A stretch of DNA of 64,000 bases, from the NCBI GenBank assembly GCA_030615175.1, contig JAUWZX010000001.1, positions 387,840-451,839 on the forward strand. Direction: 5' to 3'. The notes under the pieces are model-generated. The model ran no database searches. It was not told the origin of the DNA and saw nothing but the letters and a program-made list of their open reading frames with translations. Position 1 is the stretch's first letter, and each line of letters opens with the position of its first letter. The stretch comes from Candidatus Parvarchaeota archaeon (GTDB taxonomy: Archaea; Nanobdellota; Nanobdellia; WJKC01). This document shows positions 24,141-36,771 of the stretch, in pieces. The position numbers and the translations under genes were made by a program.

Positions 24141-24704
24141 ATGCTTGCCAAGAATAAGAAGAATTTTGCAGGATTAATTAAGCCGGTTGTAACAGTAATG
24201 GCTAAGACAGGTTTAAGACCTAATCACTTAACAGTGTTAGGGCTCGCGTTAGGAATTATTGCTTTTTTATTCACGAGCATTGATTACTGGATAACGCTTG
24301 CCTTATTCGCGTTAGCATTCAGTCTTGACGCTTTTGACGGCGCCCTGGCGAGGACGACTGGGAATGTTTCAAAGTTTGGAGGATTTCTTGACTCAGTTTG
24401 TGACAAAATTGTTGAAGTATTATTCATTGCGAGCATTGCCTTAAGGACTGGCTTATTCACCATTGCTTTATTCGCTGTCAGTTTATCAATACTCATTTCT
24501 TACTCCAAGCACAGAGCTCAATGCCTGGGCGCTAAATTCATTCACTCATCCTTTGACCGGGCTGAGCGATTAATTTACTCATTAGTGATGATGCTCGTGC
24601 ATCAATTTAATCAATTATACACTCAGTATTTATTCATTATTTACACGGTTCTCTGCGCGACTGCAATACTGCAGGTTTTTTACAGGGTTAAGAAACAGTT
24701 ATAA
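24141..24704 (+). CDS. CDP-alcohol phosphatidyltransferase (archaetidyl transferase)
   Basis: 187 residues, about six membrane helices. The CDP-OH-P motif is intact: DAFDGALAR at about 68-76, then eight residues, GGFLD and a final Asp (DxxDGxxARx8GxxxDxxxD), which bind two metals and CDP. SFDRAERLIYS further on resembles the RAE-type region of archaetidylinositol phosphate synthases. It would replace CMP of CDP-archaeol with a polar head group; which one is uncertain. It follows carS with one-base spacing and overlaps the convergent HAD gene by six bases. Confidence 0.88.
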   Translation: MLAKNKKNFAGLIKPVVTVMAKTGLRPNHLTVLGLALGIIAFLFTSIDYWITLALFALAFSLDAFDGALARTTGNVSKFGGFLDSVCDKIVEVLFIASIALRTGLFTIALFAVSLSILISYSKHRAQCLGAKFIHSSFDRAERLIYSLVMMLVHQFNQLYTQYLFIIYTVLCATAILQVFYRVKKQL

Positions 24705-25409
24705 TTCATCATAATTTATTATTATATCCCTGATGTCTTGAAAAATATGGATTCTCGGGTTTGACTTATCAATCTCACTGTGTTCATCTTCATATGCCCA
24801 TGTCTCGCAAGGAATGTAAATTACTTTTAATCCAACCTCTAATGCTGGATTAACATCTGACCTTATTGAGTTACCAACCTTAAATGTTCTGTCTTTATCT
24901 CTTTTACCAACAATGATTTCTAAATCATTTTTGTTTTTTTCATTAACAATATGAATTTCTTTAAACCAGTATTGAATATGATTAATGTCAATTTTATGTT
25001 GTTGGATTACTTTATCGCCTTTAGTGTAAAGAATTAATTCATCTTCCTTTTCTAAAAGGAAGTTAAGAACTTCTTCAGCTCCATCAATTAAGCATGGACT
25101 TATGTCAAAAGCTTGTTTTCCAATATTATAAACCTCTGTTAATTCCTGATTAGTGAAAGAATAATTTTTTGATTTGCATATAACCTTATATGTTTCCATT
25201 AATGAACCCGGAAACCTTTTTCTCGAAAACCCTAATTTTTTAACCCTGTTTTTATCAATTTCAATTTCTAAATTCATAATTGATTGTAAGTTTGGCGCTT
25301 TATAACCCAGCCTGTCAAGGATGTATTCTAGAAAAGCAATTTGTGCATAACCATAATAATGCGTGTTCGGCGCTAAGGTGTCATCATAGTCAAAAATAAA
25401 GGTTTTCAT
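24699..25409 (-). CDS. HAD-superfamily hydrolase
   Basis: 236 residues from the ATG at 25407-25409; the frame extends to 25439 but the extra residues precede the first beta strand. HAD motif I FDYDDTLAP near the N-terminus (nucleophile Asp), motif II LILYTKG, motif III Lys (near RTFKVGNS) and motif IV VGNSIRSDVNPA. An alpha-helical cap lies between motifs I and II. Probably a small-molecule phosphatase; substrate unknown. Its 3' end overlaps that of the phosphatidyltransferase gene. Confidence 0.88.
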   Translation of the reverse strand: MKTFIFDYDDTLAPNTHYYGYAQIAFLEYILDRLGYKAPNLQSIMNLEIEIDKNRVKKLGFSRKRFPGSLMETYKVICKSKNYSFTNQELTEVYNIGKQAFDISPCLIDGAEEVLNFLLEKEDELILYTKGDKVIQQHKIDINHIQYWFKEIHIVNEKNKNDLEIIVGKRDKDRTFKVGNSIRSDVNPALEVGLKVIYIPCETWAYEDEHSEIDKSNPRIHIFQDIRDIIINYDEL

Positions 25410-25453
25410 TATTAACATTTTATTCATGAGGAAAAGCATTATAATTATTTCTA

Positions 25454-26095
25454 TTATGGAGTAATGGTTAAGTTAATCGCGCTGCCTGGTCCTGGATTAA
25501 TAATTTTAGTCTTCCCAATCATTACCTGCCTGCCTTCATGTTCATGAACGTGACCGCAGATAACCATTAATGGTTGCTCGCTCTTAATGAATTCAAGTAA
25601 TGACTTGCTTCCAGCGTGAATGCCTCTATTCACTTCATCCAAGTAACCGTAAGGTGGGGGGTGACTAATTAATATAAGATTCTCCCTGCCTTTGAATTTA
25701 TCAAGCAATTCATTTATTTCTTCCTCGCTATACTCATTAGGAGTGTTAAACGGCGTCTTGTTGCTGCCGCCCAGTCCTGCAAGCGTTAATCCCTTGTACT
25801 TAACTACTTGACCGCGTAAGTTAATGAAGCCATGTTTCTCACATTCCTTTTCAATTTCATTATTCATTTCATGATTTCCTGGCACCATGAATACTGGAAT
25901 CATTGACTTTGATAGCATCATCATCATTTCACTTAATCCTGCTCCGAAGTTTGTTAAGTCGCCGGCGCAGATAATGAACCTGCAATCCTTGCTCATGGCA
26001 TTACTAACCGCATTCCTTAACGCTTCAATGCTTCCATGCAAGTCAGTGAAAGCGAAAACGCGTAAGACTCGCGTGACTTTATCTTGATGCCTCAT
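25454..26095 (-). CDS. Calcineurin-like metallophosphoesterase
   Basis: 213 residues. The five metallophosphoesterase blocks are present: FTDLHGS near 15-21, ICAGDLTNFG near 41-50, VPGNHE near 71-76, ISHPPPYG near 145-152 and ICGHVHEHEG near 184-193. These residues bind two metals. Family members cleave phosphomonoesters or phosphodiesters, sometimes cyclic nucleotides; the substrate is not readable. It follows the HAD gene upstream on the same strand, with 44 bases between. Confidence 0.9.
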   Translation of the reverse strand: MRHQDKVTRVLRVFAFTDLHGSIEALRNAVSNAMSKDCRFIICAGDLTNFGAGLSEMMMMLSKSMIPVFMVPGNHEMNNEIEKECEKHGFINLRGQVVKYKGLTLAGLGGSNKTPFNTPNEYSEEEINELLDKFKGRENLILISHPPPYGYLDEVNRGIHAGSKSLLEFIKSEQPLMVICGHVHEHEGRQVMIGKTKIINPGPGSAINLTITP

Positions 26096-27014: not shown

Positions 27015-30006
<2,992 letters not shown>

Positions 30007-30278: not shown

Positions 30279-31466
30279 TCATTGACTTTTAGGAATCATC
30301 TTTAATGCATTTGAATTGCATGCTGAAACGCAGCTGCCGCAGCCGTCACATTCATCATCATTTATTATTATTCCAACTTCATCCTTTGTTATTGCATCAT
30401 AATTGCAGAACGACAGGCAGGTATAACACTTAGTGCATTTATCATAATCAACTTTACTAATCCTTTTAATATTATTAAGACTAAACCAGTCAGTAATGGA
30501 ATCAAGCCCGCGTCCCTTAATCTCTTTTAAAACAGTTCCTTGCCTGTTCAAGTAAGATTCTAAATTCTTTATCAAGTCATTAATAACCTGATAACCTTTA
30601 TTCATGACTTCAGTGCATACTTGTATTGTTGTTGCACCTAATAATATGTATTCAATCATTGCATTATTATCTGAACTTACTCCACCCATAGCACTTACTT
30701 GGTGTTTATCATAATCAATGCTCTTGCAAATATTTGCAATACTGGCTCTTGCAAAAGGGCGGATTATTTCTCCTGACATGCCTCCATAAGTAGTCATGCC
30801 GCCAGTATTTAATTCCGGCTTTAAAGTATCAATATTAATCTCGCAAAGCCCTGCTATGGTATTAATGCCGGAGATTCCGTCTGCTCCAGCTTCAATGCAC
30901 TTGGATGCAATGTAACCTTCATTCGGGTAGGATGAATTAGTTAGTTTAACAATTATTTTCTTATCATCGACGAGAACGCTTTTCACTGCCCTGGTTAGTT
31001 CACTGCATAAATCAGGCTTCTGTCCGATAACGTATCCTTTTCCTTCATGGTCTGCATGAGGGCATGAGAAATTAAGTTCAAAACCATCAGTTTTAGTGTT
31101 CTTAAATATTCTTGCAGTATTAATCCATTCACTGACTTCTTGGCTGCCAAAAAGGCTTATGTATAATAATTTATCAGGGTATAACTCTTTTATTTCATTA
31201 ACAGTGCTAACCCAGTATTCAGGTTCATGAATTGAACCCATCTCATAATTCTGTGAGGCAATAATTTTTCCTTTATATTTTATGTGCGCTATCCTCGGAG
31301 TCTTGTCAATAAGTGGGTTTTCGCAAACACTTTTAGTAATCACGCCAGCCCAACCAGCTTTATAACCTTTAATTATGCTTTCTAAATCCTTTGTTGGCGG
31401 AGCTGAAGCAAGAATGAAAGGATTATCAAGTTCTTTACCTAAGAAATTAACTTTTAGGAGCGACAT
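30279..31466 (-). CDS. PreA-like dihydropyrimidine/dihydroorotate dehydrogenase with two 4Fe-4S clusters
   Basis: 395 residues. Residues 1-300 are an FMN-binding dihydroorotate dehydrogenase-type TIM barrel (FILASAPPTKD, GVITKSVCENP, GFELNFSCPHADHEGKG near 127-143, KLTNSS, ADGISGINT, SAMGGVSS). The C-terminus holds a ferredoxin domain with two motifs, CTKCYTCLSFCN and CDGCGSCVSACN. This matches the PreA subunit of NAD-dependent dihydropyrimidine dehydrogenase. The NAD-binding PreT partner is not adjacent, so its electron partner (perhaps ferredoxin) is unknown. It could reduce uracil or serve in pyrimidine salvage or as a redox sink. Confidence 0.88.
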   Translation of the reverse strand: MSLLKVNFLGKELDNPFILASAPPTKDLESIIKGYKAGWAGVITKSVCENPLIDKTPRIAHIKYKGKIIASQNYEMGSIHEPEYWVSTVNEIKELYPDKLLYISLFGSQEVSEWINTARIFKNTKTDGFELNFSCPHADHEGKGYVIGQKPDLCSELTRAVKSVLVDDKKIIVKLTNSSYPNEGYIASKCIEAGADGISGINTIAGLCEINIDTLKPELNTGGMTTYGGMSGEIIRPFARASIANICKSIDYDKHQVSAMGGVSSDNNAMIEYILLGATTIQVCTEVMNKGYQVINDLIKNLESYLNRQGTVLKEIKGRGLDSITDWFSLNNIKRISKVDYDKCTKCYTCLSFCNYDAITKDEVGIIINDDECDGCGSCVSACNSNALKMIPKSQ

Positions 31467-32879: not shown

Positions 32880-33479
32880 ATGGTTTTACGCTCGCAAGTC
32901 CATATTATTGGTTCCTCATACATGGCATTAAATGGAGGCTTCAAGCCAGGCATTAACGCTTTTATTAAGTACTTAAAGGAGCATAAAATTAAGTCTAAGC
33001 GCGTTTTCTTCCTTGGCGACAGATTAGTTGACATGGAATTGGCTGACGCTCTTGCCAATAAATTAAAATTCAAGTATAAAAAGTGCTTAATACTGCGCAA
33101 AGGAGACCACGGCATCGGCGTGGACCACTGCCATTACCGCGTTAGTAATTTAAGGCAAGCATTCAAGCACTTGAAGAGGTTTAAGCCTGACTTAATTCTC
33201 TGCGACTTTGATAACACACTTGTTCATAGTTTTTATGATAAGTTATCAGATGATGTTGAGAAAGTCAGGTTCTGGGAACGTTACTGCGAGAACTGGTTAA
33301 TAAGATTCATATATGGATTTATAAGCCAGCTTGATTACTTTTTCATACGTCGCAAGTTATTTGACACTGAAAAGGACAATACTGAAGGTTTCCTTAGAGT
33401 GATTGAAACTCCATTAATAATTCACAGCATGAGTCCTGAAACAGTTATTAAAAAGGCGCTAAAAAAGTGCTTTAATTAA
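32880..33479 (+). CDS. HAD-like protein with motifs in circularly permuted order
   Basis: 199 residues. HAD-phosphatase motifs are all recognisable but in the order III-IV-I-II. GGFKPG (Lys22) before an amphipathic helix matches motif III. FFLGDRLVDMELADALANK (Gly46-Asp47 and Asp51) matches motif IV. LILCDFDNTLVHS (Asp109, Asp111, Thr113) is a textbook motif I with the nucleophile Asp, and LIIHSMS near 179-185 (Ser183) matches motif II. In ordinary HAD enzymes motif I is N-terminal. The C-terminal half includes an apparent cap region rich in Phe and Tyr. The simplest reading is a circular permutation; a fusion of two HAD halves is the alternative. Role unknown; it ends about 105 bases before the 3' end of 16S. 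Confidence 0.6.
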   Translation: MVLRSQVHIIGSSYMALNGGFKPGINAFIKYLKEHKIKSKRVFFLGDRLVDMELADALANKLKFKYKKCLILRKGDHGIGVDHCHYRVSNLRQAFKHLKRFKPDLILCDFDNTLVHSFYDKLSDDVEKVRFWERYCENWLIRFIYGFISQLDYFFIRRKLFDTEKDNTEGFLRVIETPLIIHSMSPETVIKKALKKCFN

Positions 33480-33583: not shown

Positions 33584-35113
<1,530 letters not shown>

Positions 35114-35324: not shown

Positions 35325-36341
35325 TCATTCCTTTATTCTTATCGTGCCTATTGATAAGTTAATTAGTGCTTCAAGGTCTTTTAAGTCCTTAATAGGGTAG
35401 TCGTATAATGTGTTATTTATTTGAATGAATACTTTAAGTGATTCATTATCCAAGTTTTTAAGTGACAGCGTGCTTAAAGTATCAATTACCCTGCCAGTTT
35501 CTTCATTAATCTCGCCAACAACTGGCACGTTAAGCAGTAATATGAATACTAATAGCATGAATATGACTAAGTGTATAATTTTTAAGAAACCGAAGAATCT
35601 TTTAACTTGACTTTTCTCCTTTCTTAAGACTAAAAAGATGAATGATATTGGAATAATTGCTAGTAAAGGAATCTTAAACGGGTAGATTATTAATGAAATG
35701 AAGAAAGTTATTAGGACTATTGTTGAGAGGGCGATGGATAACTTTAATTTTTTCTTTAAGAATTTAGAAATGTTTGCTATTCCTCTTTTGTAGATTACGT
35801 AACCAAAAATGTATGAAGTGCATAGGCAAGCAATAATCCATGAGGGCAGTAATGTTAAGTTAGTTGTGAATGTGAACCAGCCGCTCGTGAATTTTAAGAA
35901 CTGCATTATGAACATGTTGGGGAATAAGTATTTTAAATTGTACTTGAATAACTTTTTAGTTCTTGGAGAACTATGAAGGTAATTCGTTGCTAGTAATCCA
36001 AGCAGTAATAATACGTACCAGCCACCAATCAAGGCTCCAAGCGCTATTCCTGACAGGAATAAGGCAATCATTCTTGAAATAACTTTTTCCTTAGTCAAGT
36101 CGCCTCTTGCCAGCGCCTTATAAGTTCTTTTAATACTGCTCTTCCTGTCCTCTTCATAATCCATTAAGTCATTATAATGGTAGATCGATGAGTACGTTAG
36201 CAGGAATGCGGTTAAGCCAATAATTAATCTTAATATGTTTAGTTCACCGAATATTATTAAGTAAAAAGAGAATCCTATTAAGTACTGAAACGCGTTCTTT
36301 GGTAATTGAATCAGGTACGAGTCATTTTTTAATTTCTTCAT
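35325..36341 (-). CDS. UbiA-family prenyltransferase-like membrane protein
   Basis: 338 residues, about eight to nine membrane helices. YNDLMDYEEDRKSSIKRTYKALARGDLT near 56-83 (ends: YNDLMDYEED and ALARGDLT) is the first UbiA motif, NDxxDxxxD, followed by a Lys/Arg patch as in decaprenyl-phosphate phosphoribosyltransferases. The second acidic motif of classical UbiA enzymes is poorly conserved; FGYVIYKRGIAN may occupy its place. The last 60 residues form a non-membrane extension with SLKNLDNESLKVFIQINN. A role in attaching a sugar or ring to a polyprenyl lipid is likely, substrate uncertain. The stop lies next to the 16S promoter. Confidence 0.72.
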   Translation of the reverse strand: MKKLKNDSYLIQLPKNAFQYLIGFSFYLIIFGELNILRLIIGLTAFLLTYSSIYHYNDLMDYEEDRKSSIKRTYKALARGDLTKEKVISRMIALFLSGIALGALIGGWYVLLLLGLLATNYLHSSPRTKKLFKYNLKYLFPNMFIMQFLKFTSGWFTFTTNLTLLPSWIIACLCTSYIFGYVIYKRGIANISKFLKKKLKLSIALSTIVLITFFISLIIYPFKIPLLAIIPISFIFLVLRKEKSQVKRFFGFLKIIHLVIFMLLVFILLLNVPVVGEINEETGRVIDTLSTLSLKNLDNESLKVFIQINNTLYDYPIKDLKDLEALINLSIGTIRIKE

Positions 36342-36675: not shown

Positions 36676-36771
36676 TAGCCCCGCCAGGATTCGAACCTGG
36701 GTCGCTCGGTCCAAAGCCGAGAATCAATAGTCTTTCCATTATAGGAAATTTGACCGCTAGACTACGGGGCT
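36676..36771 (-). tRNA. tRNA-Gln(TTG) with a 23-base D-loop intron
   Basis: Acceptor AGCCCCG with CGGGGCT, discriminator A, anticodon arm CTCGG-CTTTGGA-CCGAG (anticodon TTG), T arm CCAGG-TTCGAAT-CCTGG. The D loop contains an insert bounded by an ideal bulge-helix-bulge: central helix GGTC with GACT, bulges AAA and ATT, inner stem TTTCC with GGAAA and loop TATAAT. Cutting after the second base of each bulge removes 36727-36749 (23 bases) and restores AGCGGTCAATGATT, giving a normal 73-base tRNA-Gln. Confidence 0.93.

What the first reader, a model, noticed from the sequence alone, without database searches (positions are those of the whole stretch)
32880..33479. HAD-like protein with motif order III-IV-I-II
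All four HAD motifs can be assigned but in circularly permuted order: Lys22, Gly46-Asp47/Asp51, Asp109-x-Asp111-x-Thr113, Ser183. A single ORF that begins with the C-terminal half and ends with the N-terminal half of a HAD fold would be a rare natural circular permutation, or a fusion of half domains that swap within a dimer.
Basis: partly seen in the sequence, partly recalled or inferred. Interest (0 to 1): 0.6.

Follow-up and report, generated by a model that had tools for sequence, protein, structure and literature searches.

The report
Circularly permuted HAD-type phosphatase family
This small archaeal protein is a HAD-type phosphatase whose chain has been cut and re-joined so that its second half comes first, and the same rearranged order is kept in ten related genes from seven Nanoarchaeia genomes, so it is a real and apparently undescribed variant of one of the largest enzyme superfamilies.

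Summary
The ORF at 32880-33479 (+, 199 aa) carries HAD motifs in the order III (Lys22), IV (Gly46-Asp47, Asp51), I (Asp109-x-Asp111-Asn-Thr113), II (Ser183). This is not chance: homologues in the same order occur in 7 genomes of two GTDB families of Nanoarchaeia, as 10 genes in two subfamilies, including a second copy in the window's genome. No canonical-order version of the family was found in 378 genomes. The N-half is homologous to the C-terminal half of ordinary HADs (profile-profile E 3e-13). The C-half matches HAD N-terminal halves weakly but in the right register (best of 177,635 PDB sequences: HAD phosphatase 3mc1, E 0.03; NCBIfam HAD-IIIC and HAD-IA, E 0.002-0.005). AlphaFold models (pTM 0.65, 0.75) give the HAD strand-helix series rotated, with catalytic Asp/Ser at or just after strand ends. 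I read it as an Mg-dependent aspartyl-phosphate phosphatase with a C1-type cap, cut between helix 2 and strand 3; substrate unknown. I found no description of a permuted HAD in the papers held. It is a new variant of a known kind.

The parts
32880..33479 (+). Permuted HAD gene, 199 aa (P0001), subfamily B (short form)
   Evidence: homologues
32898..32912 (+). Strand 3 of the HAD fold (residues 7-11), now the first strand of the chain
   Evidence: AF2 secondary structure; aligned to HAD strand 3 before KP
32943..32945 (+). Motif III lysine, Lys22 (in GFKP)
   Evidence: K-P invariant; aligned to the KP of canonical HADs
33015..33032 (+). Motif IV, Gly46-Asp47...Asp51, at and after the end of strand 41-46
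   Evidence: invariant; aligned to GDsxxD of canonical HADs; AF2
33135..33182 (+). C-terminal strand/helix of the canonical HAD (residues 86-101), now the link into motif I
   Evidence: aligned to the canonical C-terminus AD..ITNLEEL
33204..33218 (+). Motif I, Asp109-Phe-Asp111-Asn-Thr113, at the end of strand 105-109
   Evidence: D109, D111, T113 invariant; NCBIfam HAD N-half hits in other members
33225..33404 (+). C1-type cap insert between motifs I and II (residues 116-175), mostly helical with a hydrophobic stretch
   Evidence: AF2 helices 124-135, 139-155, 168-174, low confidence for most of it; hydropathy
33426..33428 (+). Motif II Ser183 at the end of strand 179-183
   Evidence: invariant; AF2
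33438..33473 (+). Helix 2 of the HAD fold (residues 187-198), now the C-terminus of the chain
   Evidence: AF2

Best explanation
The gene encodes a circularly permuted HAD-superfamily hydrolase. Relative to a canonical HAD, the chain is cut between helix 2 (after motif II) and strand 3 (before motif III), and the old C-terminal helix runs straight into the motif-I strand. By homology to HADs, Asp109 attacks a phosphoester to form an aspartyl-phosphate, Asp111 acts as acid/base, Ser183 and Lys22 hold the phosphoryl group, and Asp47/Asp51 with Asp109 bind Mg2+; the insert between motifs I and II acts as a C1 cap that selects the substrate. Shown here: conserved rotated order, homology of the N-half, invariant catalytic residues, predicted secondary-structure order. 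Inferred: one compact active site within one chain, Mg2+ dependence, phosphatase chemistry. The substrate is unknown; in some members the cap is hydrophobic, which hints weakly at a membrane or lipid-phosphate setting.
For: Same order in homologues: the family profile finds 10 genes in 7 genomes of 378 in the class (first seen), and none outside those two GTDB families in the phylum sample. hhalign: N-half equals canonical residues 130-208, Prob 97.9, E 3.3e-13, and a second alignment puts motif I on canonical residues 4-14, E 0.003. The profile's N-half also hits C-terminal halves of ordinary HADs (E 1e-8 to 1e-5), most ending at their stop codon. NCBIfam: N-half on HisB-N/HAD-IIIA C-halves (best E 1e-5); C-half of other members on HAD-IIIC/HAD-IA N-halves (E 0.01-0.06; C-half alone 0.002-0.005). 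PDB: best hit of the C-half profile is HAD phosphatase 3mc1, residues 5-124, E 0.027. Over all rotations, the global score peaks with the cut at residue 105, the start of the motif-I strand (89.9 against 83.8 unrotated). AF2 models, pTM 0.65 and 0.75: strand order 3-4-5-6-1-2 with Asp47, Asp109 and Ser183 at or just after strand ends. Tree: two subfamilies, each in both GTDB families; the branch between them has 100/99 support.
Against: C-half matches are individually weak, and the rotation-scan peak is only modestly above other cuts (89.3 at residue 9 with fewer columns). Foldseek, which is sequential, returned no HAD in its top 50 for either model: expected for a permutation but not proof. 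The cap is modelled at low confidence. G001 has Asn for Asp47, and two paralogues lack a clear Lys-Pro, so not every member need be active. No coordinates and no assay.
Confidence: 0.8

Rival explanations
1. Half-domain exchange: the N-half of one chain and the C-half of another build each HAD domain in a dimer, so the active site is formed in trans.
For: The two halves are separable homologous units.
Against: AF2 monomer models give one chain with pTM 0.65-0.75. The link between the old C-terminal helix and the motif-I strand is short, with the usual helix-to-strand connection of a Rossmannoid, so closure within one chain needs no special geometry (inference).
Confidence: 0.1
2. Permuted HAD fold, but a pseudo-enzyme or phospho-binding regulator rather than a phosphatase.
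For: Asn for Asp47 in the G001 orthologue; two paralogues lack a clear motif III lysine; substrate and partner genes unknown.
Against: Asp109, Asp111 and Thr113 are invariant in all members aligned. Loss of catalysis would usually relax them.
Confidence: 0.15
3. A receiver-like (CheY) Rossmannoid rather than a HAD. Receivers use the same residues in the order IV-I-II-III, and the middle of this protein is colinear with that.
Against: Motif III lysine is at the N-terminus, not after motif II. DxDNT, a cap insert of about 60 residues and the KP...GDxxxD segment are HAD traits with HAD profile matches. Foldseek E-values are above 0.008 and TM-scores to the query about 0.25.
Confidence: 0.04
4. 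The cut lies elsewhere: the N-terminal strand (I-I-G-S / V-S-A) is motif II and the C-terminal strand-helix is extra.
For: A Ser sits near the end of the first strand in most members.
Against: Its distance to the lysine (about 10 residues) fits canonical strand 3; canonical motif II lies about 35 residues from the lysine. hhalign aligns it to strand 3, and the 3mc1 alignment places the C-terminal strand-helix on HAD motif II and helix 2.
Confidence: 0.05
5. Chance fusion or assembly artefact of two HAD fragments.
For: Only the single ORF in the window was known at the start.
Against: Ten genes in seven independent assemblies, two subfamilies, and no complementary HAD halves seen next to the window gene.
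Confidence: 0.01

Closest known systems
HAD superfamily subfamily IA / HAD_2 (Pfam PF13419; C1-cap hydrolases such as phosphoglycolate phosphatase)
   Same: All four motifs, KP before helix 3, GDxxxD, C-terminal AD...NL-x-E element, insert between motifs I and II
   Different: Order III-IV-I-II instead of I-II-III-IV; cap sequence unrelated; below the Pfam gathering score
HAD-IIIA / histidinol-phosphatase HisB-N (TIGR01662, TIGR01261)
   Same: Best library matches of the window protein's N-half (E 1e-5)
   Different: Only the C-terminal half of those models matches; motif order differs
Response-regulator receiver domain (CheY)
   Same: Same type of sheet and same catalytic residue set; order IV-I-II is colinear with part of this protein. 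The HAD-CheY similarity is from Ridder and Dijkstra 1999, as cited in PMC10400377; the motif correspondence is from my own knowledge
   Different: Receivers have the lysine last, no cap, and no DxDxT

Membership tests
HAD superfamily | Motif I DxDx(T/V) nucleophile at the end of a strand | tested here: met
   D109, D111, T113 invariant; strand 105-109
HAD superfamily | Motif II Ser/Thr after a hydrophobic strand | tested here: met
   S183 invariant (Thr in G001), strand 179-183; unclear in L004/L005
HAD superfamily | Motif III Lys | tested here: met
   K22 of the KP invariant in six members; not clear in two paralogues
HAD superfamily | Motif IV acidic pair after a strand | tested here: met
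   G46-D47...D51; Asn at the first position in G001
HAD superfamily | Canonical motif order I-II-III-IV | tested here: not met
   Order is III-IV-I-II in the window protein and its relatives
HAD superfamily | Detectable sequence homology to HADs | tested here: met
   N-half E 3e-13 by hhalign; C-half weak, E 0.002-0.03
HAD superfamily | Rossmannoid core with squiggle and flap, one active site | tested here: inconclusive
   Secondary structure order fits under rotation; no coordinates, and no HAD in the sequential Foldseek top 50
HAD superfamily | Mg2+-dependent phosphoester hydrolysis via aspartyl-phosphate | not testable with these tools
   needs an assay
Response-regulator receiver domain | Order DD - Asp - Thr/Ser - Lys in about 120 aa, without insert | tested here: not met
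   Lys is N-terminal; about 70 residues separate motifs I and II

The most novel reading that the evidence does not exclude
A natural, catalytically active circular permutant of the HAD fold, arisen in Nanoarchaeia before the split of two families, whose motif order (III-IV-I-II) is a rotation both of canonical HAD (I-II-III-IV) and of receiver domains (IV-I-II-III, one step away), showing that the HAD/receiver fold can be permuted in nature while keeping its catalytic site.
Probability: 0.5. Interest if true: 0.72.

Novelty: new variant of a known kind. Interest (0 to 1): 0.6.

Why it matters
HADs are one of the largest enzyme superfamilies, and their motifs have served as a fixed-order signature. 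A conserved natural permutant shows which connections of the fold are dispensable, is missed or half-annotated by order-based models (only HAD halves are hit here, below curated cut-offs), and gives a natural test case for the proposed kinship of HADs and response-regulator receivers, whose motif orders are rotations of each other.

Tried and rejected
Viral contigs: no relatives. PHROGs: nothing of note. Pfam on rotated sequences raised HAD scores only slightly, and for the window protein only (Hydrolase 15.0 to 18.3 bits; HAD PF12710 full-length 15.9 bits after rotation). Foldseek against PDB and viral models gave only generic Rossmannoid hits. A HMMER rotation test failed on an option clash and was replaced by hhalign. 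Searching the rotated alignment for a canonical-order sister gave only the family's own halves separately and ordinary HAD C-halves. L009 and L010 are unrelated proteins by inspection (no motif series; L010 resembles a metallophosphoesterase) and were left out. Functional clues from neighbours are weak: a metallo-beta-lactamase-fold gene lies beside subfamily A in one GTDB family, Ogg and Hjc genes beside the short paralogues, UbiA and 16S near the window copy and its G001 orthologue.

Full report
Observation. The ORF at 32880-33479 (+) encodes 199 aa in a 1.0 Mb genome. Relatives found in named GTDB records are uncultured archaeon LFW-252_1, Nanoarchaeota archaeon Zod_Metabat.1304, Ca. Nanoarchaeia archaeon STB_47 and archaeon CG07_land_8_20_14_0_80_38_8, and they lie in the same class as the window's genome, so the group is Nanoarchaeia or close to it. 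Pfam sees only a weak HAD_2 match to residues 21-57 against profile positions 134-170 of 178, i.e. the C-terminal part of a HAD.

Family. The own genome holds a second, 229 aa copy with the same order. In the class sample (378 genomes) the family occurs in seven genomes of two GTDB families, ten genes in all; a phylum sample of 371 genomes added none. The order is K-P, then G-D-x(3)-D, then D-x-D-N-T, then a hydrophobic strand ending in Ser/Thr, at 22-46% identity to the window protein, with exceptions in two short paralogues and one divergent long one. Two members are cut by contig ends. A tree gives two subfamilies, long (A) and short (B), each present in both GTDB families (100/99 support), so the permutation is older than the duplication unless one subfamily was transferred.

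Homology of each half. Compared with five ordinary HADs of the class, the N-half aligns to residues 130-208, the last part of the chain, Prob 97.9, E 3.3e-13; the second alignment puts the motif-I segment on residues 4-14, E 0.003. The family profile also hits ordinary HADs through its N-half alone, most running into their stop codons. In NCBIfam the N-half matches C-terminal parts of HisB-N and HAD-IIIA, and in other members the C-half matches N-terminal parts of HAD-IIIC and HAD-IA; the G001 protein shows both at once. The C-half profile's best PDB match is a HAD phosphatase, 3mc1, from motif I through motif II and helix 2, E 0.027. A scan over rotations peaks at a cut before the motif-I strand, but the margin is small because the N-half carries most of the signal. 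No canonical-order sister with the same cap was found.

Structure. AlphaFold of the window protein (five-sequence alignment) gives pTM 0.65, and of the LFW-252_1 homologue pTM 0.75, with most core blocks at pLDDT 80-92 in the latter. The element order is strand 3, helix, strand 4 (motif IV at its end), helix, strand 5, short strand 6, helix, strand 1 (motif I at its end), cap helices, strand 2 (motif II at its end), helix 2: the HAD order rotated, with the cut between helix 2 and strand 3. The sheet order 32145 for HADs is from PMC6957218. HAD and CheY share their site (Ridder and Dijkstra 1999, cited in PMC10400377), and by my own knowledge receivers carry the same residues in the order IV-I-II-III. 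I could not measure distances, since coordinates are not returned.

Mechanism. From HAD chemistry: Asp109 nucleophile, Asp111 acid/base, Ser183 and Lys22 phosphate ligands, Asp47/Asp51 Mg2+ ligands (roles of the motifs as summarised in PMC3734299). The insert between motifs I and II would be a C1 cap. Its hydrophobic stretch (mean hydropathy over 19 residues up to 2.3 in G048; 0.9 in the window protein) suggests, weakly, a lipid or membrane-linked substrate. The most likely route of origin is tandem duplication of a HAD gene, then a new start before strand 3 of the first copy and a new stop after helix 2 of the second (inference); no intermediate was found.

Known or new. Literature searches for circular permutation with HAD terms found no permuted HAD (passages checked), within an open-licence library only. 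It is therefore filed as a new variant of the HAD superfamily: the four motifs are met, the canonical order is not.

Noticed in passing
window 27015-30005 (-) and 33586-35113 (-): 16S and 23S rRNA genes are on the same strand but separated by about 3.6 kb with protein genes on both strands and a tRNA-Ala on the opposite strand: the rRNA operon is broken up.
   Followed up: no
window 36676-36771 (-): A 96-base tRNA match in Rfam that ARAGORN missed; its length suggests an intron-containing tRNA.
   Followed up: no
window 24702-25439 (-): An ordinary-order HAD (FDYDDT at its N-terminus) in the same window, next to a metallophosphoesterase gene (25457-26095): a natural control for the permuted one.
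   Followed up: partly
L048 2646-3829; L051 9021-10246: In two genomes of one genus the short permuted paralogue overlaps the Ogg-type 8-oxoguanine glycosylase gene by about 30 bases, beside an Hjc resolvase gene.
   Followed up: no
window 35328-36341 (-); L045 289-1302: A UbiA-family prenyltransferase gene next to the 16S gene, conserved near the permuted HAD gene in G001 as well.
   Followed up: partly
window 30279-31466 (-): Dihydroorotate-dehydrogenase-like protein with a C-terminal pair of 4Fe-4S motifs, like PreA-type dehydrogenases.
   Followed up: no
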